The position numbers and the translations under genes were made by a program. Shown here in pieces: positions 10,424 through 12,672 of a DNA stretch of 64,000 bases. Every line of letters begins with the position of its first letter. Position 1 is the first letter of the stretch. Where the stretch lies: positions 399,996 to 463,995 of the forward strand of contig NZ_STFZ01000011.1 in assembly GCF_005222845.1 (NCBI RefSeq). Reading direction: 5' to 3'. The notes beneath the pieces were generated by a model. The model was not told the DNA's origin, ran no database searches, and worked only from the letters and a program-made list of their open reading frames with translations. This DNA is from Rhizobium sp. FY34 (lineage in GTDB: Bacteria > Pseudomonadota > Alphaproteobacteria > Rhizobiales > Rhizobiaceae).

Positions 10424-10454
10424 TCAGCTATCCAGGAACGAGCGCAGCTTGCGG
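10424..10454 (-). repeat. Displaced copy of the rpoD 3' end (direct repeat, left)
   Basis: On the minus strand this encodes RKLRSFLDS and a TGA stop, the last residues of RpoD, with no sigma-factor sequence before it. It matches 12642-12672 in the same orientation at 27 of 31 positions. The only mismatches are four adjacent bases. Similarity ends at the stop codon on one side and at the CGC (Arg) codon on the other. This is what an attachment-site duplication from insertion at the gene's 3' end would leave. Confidence 0.8.
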
Positions 10455-10489
10455 TCGCGACATCTACATTTCAGGACGCCGTTTTTCGA

Positions 10490-12493
10490 TCAACTGGATG
10501 ACAGGAACGAAAGGAATTTCCGGATCGCCTCGGTTAGGGTCGCGATCGCTGTTCTGCCCTGCTCACTAGAAGCCAGCGTCGTCATGCTACCAAGTGCAGA
10601 GAGGATACGCTCCCAGAAACCGATTTGCGAAAATACGAAGCGACGCTTCGGCGTAATATCTGCACCCTGACCGCCACCGGGAGGATTGGGCAGGGAATCA
10701 ATGTCTCGGGCCGTTTGCAGACTATCCTGAACCACCCGCTCAAATTCCGGCGTTGTTCCACCAATTGTATGCAGTTCTGCCAGAGCCTCCGTGACCTTCT
10801 TCACCGGTTCAATGAAATCCTTGCCGCTGGCGCGATCTTCATCGATCTCATTCGTCGCGAGCGCTTCTTCACGCTCCTGCGACTTCGGGAAATGCGTGAT
10901 GTATTTCGAATGACAGGAAAAGAAGTTGCCGAAGTGTATCGCCAGACCATCGCCCCAAACATGGAACTCTACGGATCGGACGTCACGGTTCAATGCCTCA
11001 GCCAGCATGCAAAGCAATCCGAGGATTGGGCGAACGCCTCTCTCGCTTAGGTGATTGCGATAGGCCTGCAATGATGGTGCAATCGTTCTCGGACTATTGT
11101 CCGGAAGAGATGCCTCAATCACCGCGCACAGTGTCCGCAACATCTCGGGCAAATCCGGCAGATCAGCATCAAAGACCGGACGATCATAGATGGCATTGGG
11201 CACAGCATCCAGCCTGCCATCCGGCGTCAACGCCACGTCCGGGCTCGCCGTTTCGGCAAGCCGTCGTTTCAGCATGTCCAGCGGCAACGGATTTGATGCG
11301 TGCCCAATTGCATCCAGCACGGCGGCACGGCGCTCTTCCGCGTTCAAGCCCAGCAGTGACTTATAGACAATCTGGCCTGCCAGTTTATTGAGGCTAGCGG
11401 ATTTTAGAAGCAGCGGAACAAGCTTACGGCCTTTGCCGAGCGGGTCCATATTGTAAACGGCTGCCCATTCGGCACGGCAGTGATCTGATGCCACGTAATC
11501 GGGTGACAGCAGTGCGATCGCACGCGCGCCACGCTCTAACCCGTCCTGCATTTCGATGACAAAGTTCGAACCGACCGGAAAATCCTTGAACTGGGCGATC
11601 GTGGAGTAACCAGCGTCTTCCAGATAGCCGTTGATCTCGCGGGCTTCGGCTTCGTTCCGCGTGGAATAGCTTATAAAAAAATTGATTCTGGTCGTATCTT
11701 GGCCAAAAGCAGATGCACTATTGGCTTTTAGGATTTCGGAATGCCTTTCCAAGATGTCGACGATTGACTGCATTATCTCATCGGGATCGCGGCCAAAATT
11801 AGAAATGTCTTGAGTTGCGATTTCGTACGCAATTTGCTCTTCGTCAGATGAAGTCACCAAAACATCGCGGCGCGACTGCAGCGATAAGCACCACTTCAGT
11901 ATGAAGCTCCAACGTCCTCCGATACTTTCAAATATATTTTTTGCATAATCTACTCTTGAATAATATACATTGTAGTCAGATACGCTCCATAGAGGAACGG
12001 AAGTCATAGAAAAATTTGATATTTCACGAGTACGCTTAAGGTCTTTGCGAATGACATCCCAATGGTCAATTCCGTTGGACTTTTTGTATTCAAGAAATAT
12101 ATTTGACAGCCTTTTTGTAAAGAATGGCGGATTACCATCATTCATTATAGCGTCAACCAACCGTGAAATTGCCCTAATACTCGCCTGTGGAGAAATTCCG
12201 TCAATATCCTTTAACCGCTGGGCAAGAAGAACAAAAGCATCTTGCGGCACTGCATCAGGGCATCGAAAAGAGAAGAAACAGAGAACGATTCCATGGAATG
12301 CCGAAATGTATCGATATTTTATCTGCCGTGGGCTTAGTGAAGGAACCTCCAGGTCAGAAATACTCAAAATGAATACACGTAGAGCAATACGAAACGCGAC
12401 TATTCTCGCCTCGGCTGATGGGCGAGCTATGAGATACGCCTCAAGCGTTTCCGCACTATCAATTTCATCAATCGTCGGTACGCGATCCGCCAT
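10490..12493 (-). CDS. TIR-domain protein, candidate NADase/antiphage effector
   Basis: This 667-residue protein has a TIR domain in the middle (about residues 270-400): [20 protein letters not shown], then [28 protein letters not shown] and RAEWAAVY. The Glu of RAEW (about 342) is at the position of the catalytic Glu of NAD-cleaving TIR domains. Residues 1-265 are mostly helical and of no family I recognise. The last 250 residues, ending [10 protein letters not shown], are also unassigned. No transmembrane helix is obvious. ATG 12493 has an AGGGG-type site upstream. Bacterial TIR proteins often act in abortive infection; that role here is inference. The gene stands alone between the two rpoD-tail repeats. 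Confidence 0.82.
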
Positions 12494-12582
12494 CAGCACC
12501 CCTAAATCTTGTCCCGCCCACCATGCACAACCGCCCTTTGCCCGGCAAGGCGAAGTTGAGACCTGCCCCAGAACCCCGACGC

Positions 12583-12615
12583 AAAAAAGGCCGGAGCGTT
12601 TCCACTCCGGCCTTT
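12583..12615 (-). terminator. rpoD terminator
   Basis: On the minus strand, after the rpoD stop, a GC-rich 11-bp stem (12605-12615 with 12586-12596) with an 8-nt loop is followed by a run of six T. It should insulate rpoD from the TIR gene. Confidence 0.88.
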
Positions 12616-12641
12616 CCAAAATCACGACCTTGCAGCTGTCA

Positions 12642-12672
12642 TCAGCTATCCAGGAAGCTCCGCAGCTTGCGG
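12642..12672 (-). repeat. Current rpoD 3' end (direct repeat, right)
   Basis: This is the in-place copy of the 31-bp sequence repeated at 10424-10454 (27 of 31 identical). It is part of the rpoD coding sequence and ends exactly at its stop codon. The two copies are 2,218 bp apart and bracket the TIR gene. Confidence 0.8.

What the first reader, a model, noticed from the sequence alone, without database searches (positions are those of the whole stretch)
10424..12672. TIR gene inserted at the 3' end of rpoD, bracketed by a 31-bp duplication of the gene end
The last 31 bp of rpoD (12642-12672) occur again in the same orientation at 10424-10454, with 27 of 31 identical. The second copy has no sigma-factor sequence before it and is followed by its own terminator. 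Similarity stops at the stop codon. Integrative elements that use a gene's 3' end as attachment site leave exactly this: one restored gene end and one displaced end. Here the bracketed 2.2 kb carries only a TIR-domain gene and no integrase. That suggests a passenger cassette, a remnant, or an element mobilised in trans, using rpoD as a defence-gene integration site.
Basis: partly seen in the sequence, partly recalled or inferred. Interest (0 to 1): 0.82.

Follow-up and report, generated by a model that had tools for sequence, protein, structure and literature searches.

The report
Recombination scar behind a sigma-factor gene
A probable immune (TIR) gene sits directly behind the essential gene rpoD, and a leftover second copy of the end of rpoD shows that two versions of this stretch were once spliced together; related bacteria carry the same gene in the same place, so it looks like a known kind of gene-swapping spot more than a new mobile element.

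Summary
The last 31 bp of rpoD recur at 10424-10454 (27/31; best in 60 random 64-kb sequences: 22). All differences are synonymous, so both copies come from working rpoD genes. The displaced copy runs into the rpoD terminator region of close relatives; the attached copy runs into a terminator matched only by G018, which also has a TIR gene there. The locus is a chimera.

The mobile-cassette reading is only partly supported. TIR relatives (36% identity or more) lie directly behind rpoD in 7 of 7 genomes where rpoD was in view, in at least two GTDB genera; 6 of these 7 have no displaced tail. No tyrosine recombinase was found between rpoD and the DUF930 gene in 74 genomes. I favour recombination with one homologous and one illegitimate join at a core-gene-flanked hotspot, as described for Vibrio T6SS modules. 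Which side is the newcomer is unresolved.

Unexplained: displaced tails occur at 3 of 140 rpoD ends against 0 of 1,249 other predicted gene ends, and all three start within 2 nt of the same place. A site-specific process is not excluded.

The parts
12642..14687 (-). rpoD (sigma-70), complete; ATG at 14687, stop at 12642-12644
   Evidence: Pfam regions 1.1 to 4; sequence
12642..12672 (-). attached copy of the rpoD tail ([13 protein letters not shown])
12585..12616 (-). hairpin behind the attached tail (terminator 2); its flank matches only the rpoD 3' flank of G018
   Evidence: fold; flank comparison (34, next 19.5, shuffled maximum 15.5)
10490..12493 (-). TIR gene, 667 aa; N-terminal part strongly diverged, TIR and C-terminal part conserved with G022 and G033
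11345..11680 (-). TIR domain (PF13676)
   Evidence: residues 273-384 of P0001
10455..10489 (-). 35-bp spacer between the TIR stop and the displaced tail; no relative of it found in the loci held
10424..10454 (-). displaced copy of the rpoD tail, with stop, no rpoD sequence before it
10368..10398 (-). hairpin behind the displaced tail (terminator 1); its flank matches the rpoD 3' flanks of G049, G036, G033, G022
   Evidence: fold; flank comparison
9944..10366 (+). PIN-domain (VapC-like) gene, interrupted by an in-frame stop at about 10202
9699..9944 (+). Phd/YefM-type antitoxin gene
   Evidence: PF02604
8346..9605 (-). conserved downstream neighbour with a DUF930 domain and a proline-rich TonB/TolA-like stretch (ORF; true start uncertain)

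Best explanation
The rpoD-DUF930 interval is a core-gene-flanked variable locus in which a TIR gene family is a long-standing but patchy resident. In this strain two versions of the locus were spliced: [rpoD - terminator 2 - TIR], as in G018, and [rpoD tail - terminator 1 - PIN/Phd pair - DUF930 gene], as in other relatives. One end of the splice lay in homologous sequence; the other was an illegitimate join between the TIR 3' flank and the last 31 bp of an rpoD gene, which left that gene end behind as a scar. Shown: the chimeric flanks, the synonymous differences, the fixed position of the TIR family, no tyrosine recombinase in the interval. Inferred: the one-sided homologous join, by analogy with homology-facilitated illegitimate recombination. 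Not resolved: whether the TIR half came in (anchored in rpoD) or the terminator 1 half came in (anchored downstream). The TIR protein is most likely an immune effector of the abortive-infection type with a variable sensor part; this rests on family knowledge and the pattern of conservation, not on a test.
For: Flank of the displaced copy best matches G049, G036, G033, G022, and flank of the attached copy matches G018 alone, far above shuffles. In G018 the attached half exists as plain chromosome: rpoD, the same kind of terminator, TIR, no second tail. TIR relatives lie directly behind rpoD in 7 of 7 genomes with rpoD in view. No tyrosine recombinase between rpoD and the DUF930 gene in 74 genomes. 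The interval holds different cargo in different species. The same outcome, a resident 3' end shifted back behind an incoming module, is described for V. cholerae T6SS clusters (PMC5361080, section 13).
Against: No donor tract in rpoD could be shown: the last 61 bp lean towards G018, G011 and G054, but the signal is weak. No donor continues across the 35-bp spacer, so no microhomology at the junction can be shown. Displaced tails are commoner at rpoD (3 of 140) than at other gene ends (0 of 1,249) and start within 2 nt of each other, which random illegitimate joining does not predict. Such recombination is reported as rare.
Confidence: 0.6

Rival explanations
1. Site-specific integration: the rpoD tail is an attachment site, and a 2.2-kb element (or a remnant of a larger one) was integrated by a recombinase supplied in trans.
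For: Direct repeat that ends at the stop codon, intact gene, empty site in relatives. Displaced tails enriched at rpoD (3 of 140 against 0 of 1,249) and starting within 2 nt of each other.
Against: No tyrosine recombinase between rpoD and the DUF930 gene in 74 genomes; none of nine PF00589 matches of the genome on this contig; 6 of 7 TIR loci lack the repeat; TIR relatives not found at other attachment sites above 36% identity. Serine recombinases were not searched.
Confidence: 0.2
2. Single crossover of a circularised fragment: a fragment with a short rpoD end and the TIR gene was closed into a circle by ligation and integrated by RecA at the 31-bp repeat.
For: Gives the same repeat; circularisation followed by single crossover is reported for linear DNA in E. 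coli conjugation (PMC3240628, abstract).
Against: 31 bp with four clustered mismatches is very short for RecA-mediated exchange (general knowledge); needs a fragment that begins within the last codons of rpoD.
Confidence: 0.1
3. Tandem duplication in place: the rpoD tail was duplicated by replication slippage, the TIR gene came to lie between the copies later, and the copies diverged.
For: Slippage seems to happen at this place: G038 repeats CTCGACAGCTGA-like units behind its stop.
Against: The two 3' flanks match different relatives; the four differences are clustered, synonymous, and each version occurs in natural rpoD tails of other species (displaced form exact in G176 and G212, attached form exact in G007, G034 and L097).
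Confidence: 0.05

Closest known systems
Displacement of effector 3' ends by T6SS effector-immunity modules in Vibrio cholerae (PMC5361080; section 13 and passages read)
   Same: A conserved upstream gene is the proposed anchor, a new module lies directly behind it, and the resident 3' end is shifted back as a remnant.
   Different: Here the anchor would be rpoD, the remnant is 31 bp, and the cargo is one TIR gene with no toxin-immunity pairing; the direction of the event is unresolved.
Horizontal transfer hotspots without mobile elements, with recombination at flanking core genes (PMC5635113; passages read)
   Same: Core genes on both sides, variable content, no integrase.
   Different: That model is a double homologous exchange, which leaves no displaced gene end; raised recombination in rpoD or the DUF930 gene was not shown here.
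Core defence hotspots of Pseudomonas aeruginosa (PMC10250203; abstract and outline seen)
   Same: Immune genes found repeatedly between the same core genes.
   Different: This locus is small and usually holds other cargo or none; no proven immune function.
Integrative elements at gene 3' ends, for example tRNA or other target genes (general knowledge)
   Same: Direct repeat, restored gene end, empty site in relatives.
   Different: No integrase found, and the repeat does not recur around the same gene in relatives.

Membership tests
Integrative element with att sites at a gene 3' end | direct repeat of the gene end that brackets the unit | tested here: met
   27 of 31
Integrative element with att sites at a gene 3' end | empty site in relatives | tested here: met
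   (species-level relatives only)
Integrative element with att sites at a gene 3' end | own integrase | tested here: not met
   one gene in the unit, a TIR gene; no PF00589 match on the contig; serine recombinases not searched elsewhere
Integrative element with att sites at a gene 3' end | the same repeats around the unit in other carriers | tested here: not met
   0 of 6 other carriers
Integrative element with att sites at a gene 3' end | excision or a circular form | not testable with these tools
   no reads available
Homology-facilitated illegitimate recombination scar | displaced resident gene end behind incoming DNA | tested here: met
   chimeric flanks; which half came in is open
Homology-facilitated illegitimate recombination scar | donor-like tract in the homologous anchor | tested here: inconclusive
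   weak G018-like signal in the last 61 bp
Homology-facilitated illegitimate recombination scar | microhomology or none at the other join | tested here: inconclusive
   no donor for the 35-bp spacer in the loci held
Core-gene-flanked hotspot without mobile elements | conserved flanking genes, variable content, no integrase | tested here: met
Core-gene-flanked hotspot without mobile elements | raised recombination in the flanking core genes | not tested
   one genome per species held, too divergent for such a test
TIR immune effector | TIR domain with the glutamate that is catalytic in NADase TIRs (assignment recalled) | tested here: met
   PF13676 above its cut-off; glutamate 342 in CRAEW invariant in the 4 aligned proteins
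TIR immune effector | member of a named defence system | tested here: not met
   3 proteins gave only weak PADLOC matches within the TIR domain, best E 4.4e-6

The most novel reading that the evidence does not exclude
The rpoD 3' end of Rhizobiaceae is a recombination site in its own right: a trans-acting, sequence-specific process acts at a fixed point 29-31 bp before the end of the gene, so that cargo, or nothing, can be set in behind an essential gene without harming it. The TIR unit here and the two cargo-free scars in G003 and G166 would be three products of it.
Probability: 0.15. Interest if true: 0.7.

Novelty: new member of a known kind. Interest (0 to 1): 0.4.

Why it matters
It catches an event by which accessory, probably immune, genes can move without mobile elements: an essential, highly conserved gene serves as anchor, and a short, synonymously different gene end betrays the join. 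Looking for such displaced gene ends would be a cheap way to find similar events at other loci. The TIR family, with a conserved TIR and C-terminal half and a strongly diverged N-terminal part, is a candidate immune effector that none of the family libraries used here names.

Tried and rejected
Donor tract in rpoD: identity profiles against 11 relatives and 29 relatives, and mismatch counts against 139 rpoD ends, gave only a weak G018-like signal at the 3' end; for bases 31-151 before the end the closest were in fact G042 and G047 (3 and 4 mismatches), which fits no simple donor. Structure of the TIR protein from the 4-row alignment: mean pLDDT 40, not used, no fold search made. Palindrome at the rpoD tail as a recombinase site: 14 of 139 tails have full 8-bp arms against a shuffled mean of 11.6 and maximum of 17, so no enrichment. 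Displaced rpoD terminators behind the other TIR genes: G018 weakly positive (26, shuffled maximum 22.5); G033 positive only against a distant genome (29.5, G144; shuffled maximum 20.5); G022, L096, L097 and G454 not above shuffles. The 35-bp spacer shares AGATGTCGCGA with a small ORF behind rpoD in G008; taken as chance. Likeness of the TIR C-terminus ([10 protein letters not shown]) to the RpoD C-terminus (RKLRSFLDS) is not shared by L096 and G454; taken as chance. PF00589 over the genus printed only the best matches, so a local profile was used instead. DNA-level scan of 1,366 predicted gene ends gave 2 matches of 25 of 31 or better: the window's rpoD and one in L129 without a stop, which looks like a repeat inside genes. 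Literature searches (listings with abstract starts only; one listed 15 of 1,660) showed no paper on integration at rpoD or on a TIR gene behind rpoD.

Full report
The repeat is real. The last 31 bases of rpoD (12642-12672) occur again at 10424-10454 with 27 of 31 identical. The next best place in the window scores 20, and the best in 60 Markov sequences of 64 kb scores 22. Both copies encode [13 protein letters not shown] and differ only at synonymous positions. No rpoD similarity precedes the displaced copy (16 of 60). Both are followed by terminator-like hairpins, though a simple consensus scan listed neither. Between them lies one gene, for a 667-residue protein with a TIR domain.

The locus is a chimera. 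I compared the two 3' flanks with the rpoD 3' flanks of 139 other entries, all Rhizobiaceae genomes or contigs. The flank of the displaced copy best matches G049, G036, G033 and G022 (41, 41, 40, 32; shuffled maximum 12.5). The flank of the attached copy matches G018 alone (34; next 19.5; shuffled maximum 15.5). By rpoD outside its last 200 bases the nearest of 29 genomes compared are G036, G049, G008, G033, G022 and G018, at 88.6-90.3%.

The TIR gene keeps to one place. Of 57 genomes of the genus, 4 carry it: the window's own, G022, G033 and G018; two more of the 100 genomes searched, G095 and G070 from other families, gave weak matches to the domain. A scan of the GTDB 220 contigs with the four-protein alignment gave five loci: those of G033 and G018, Agrobacterium vitis CG78, Rhizobium sp. 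RU36D and a metagenome bin. Of 394 family genomes, 5 match at E 1e-20 or better: the window's own, G018, G454, and, at 33% identity, G400 and G227. In 7 of 7 genomes with 36% identity or more and rpoD in view, the gene lies directly behind rpoD; in A. vitis the gap is about 1.4 kb. The metagenome contig begins inside the TIR gene and has DUF930-gene-like sequence further on. G400 and G227 have no rpoD in the 12 kb fetched. The other three carriers of the genus rank 4th to 6th of 56 by rpoD match; by my arithmetic the chance of all three lying in the top six is about 0.0007. That fits a patchy resident of one clade, exchanged or lost, better than a free cassette.

The protein is modular. Against G022 and G033 the TIR part is 89-90% and the C-terminal part 84-85% identical, but the N-terminal 265 residues only 25-26%. 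Against G018 the TIR part is 66% and both other parts 22-26%. I read the N-terminal part as the sensor; this is inference. A structure prediction failed to give a usable model.

Recombinase test. I scanned 1.54 Mb behind rpoD in 140 genomes with a profile of 20 tyrosine recombinase domains from the genus. There were 14 matches at E below 0.001; the nearest starts 3,444 bp from rpoD. In the 74 genomes where the DUF930 gene was found within 9 kb, none lies between rpoD and that gene. In 7 regions with matches that I checked, a tRNA-Met gene was found; by my arithmetic it lies next to the recombinase, which offers an ordinary target. The window's genome has nine PF00589 matches, none on its contig. 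Serine recombinases were not searched. Some regions were short (G047 479 bp; L117 and L174 about 2 kb).

Displaced tails elsewhere. The 140 rpoD ends are 57 of the genus, A. vitis CG78, RU36D, G454, and 80 of the 122 family genomes with a match. Three have a displaced tail: the window's own, G003 and G166. In G003 and G166 the second tail follows about 7 bases after the stop and brackets no gene. Their attached tails differ from each other at only 2 of 31 bases although the species are in different genera. Among 1,249 other predicted gene ends in the same regions there were none; these are mechanical ORFs, some surely false, so the contrast is rough. The displaced copies are 31, 29 and 29 bases long with the stop. 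Detection needs 7 of 9 residues, so short scars are favoured, but the coincidence is unexplained and is the best argument for a site-specific process.

Mechanism. I favour one homologous and one illegitimate join, because the attached half exists as plain chromosome in G018, because nothing in the unit could move it, and because the same outcome is described for V. cholerae effector modules, where a conserved upstream stretch is proposed to anchor incoming DNA and resident 3' parts are shifted back (PMC5361080, section 13). Such events are reported as rare (PMC3240628, abstract). Two directions fit: the TIR half came in through rpoD, or the terminator 1 half came in through homology further on. 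The affinity of the last bases of rpoD does not decide it.

Place among known things. Hotspots that lack mobile elements and show recombination at flanking core genes are known (PMC5635113, passages), as are core-gene-flanked immune loci (PMC10250203, abstract). This is a new example with an unusually readable scar. The listings of searches, in an open-access library only, showed no report of integration at rpoD or of a TIR gene behind rpoD.

Noticed in passing
L040 (G008) and L125/L186 (G179), directly behind rpoD; L187-L201 elsewhere: A 76-codon ORF of unknown family starts 1 nt after the rpoD stop in two genera. Its relatives (16 of 394 family genomes) often sit at the very end of other conserved genes, for example beside genes that look like fmt and truA (L187-L189) and behind one that looks like an enoyl-CoA hydratase ending in WTGE (L194-L196) (gene names recalled). 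A single-ORF unit that settles at stop codons would be worth a study of its own.
   Followed up: partly
L085 (G003) and L146 (G166), just behind rpoD: Tandem rpoD tails about 7 bp apart with no cargo; the attached tails are nearly alike in two genera.
   Followed up: partly
L076 (G038), just behind rpoD: Several CTCGACAGCTGA-like repeats of the gene end in a row, as if by slippage.
   Followed up: no
window 30-181 and 317-3070: Three CRISPR-like 30-bp repeats at 61-bp spacing next to a cas3 gene.
   Followed up: no
window 3389-6302: IS3-type and IS110-type transposase genes beside tRNA-Met at 6227-6302; in relatives tyrosine recombinase genes lie beside this tRNA.
   Followed up: partly
window 9944-10366: The PIN-domain gene of the Phd/PIN pair is interrupted by an in-frame stop at about 10202.
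   Followed up: no
last nine codons of rpoD in 139 genomes: AGG/AGA are 27 of 139 codons at the first arginine and 24 of 139 at the second, against 47 of 1,652 arginine codons in the 130 codons before. The cause is open.
   Followed up: no
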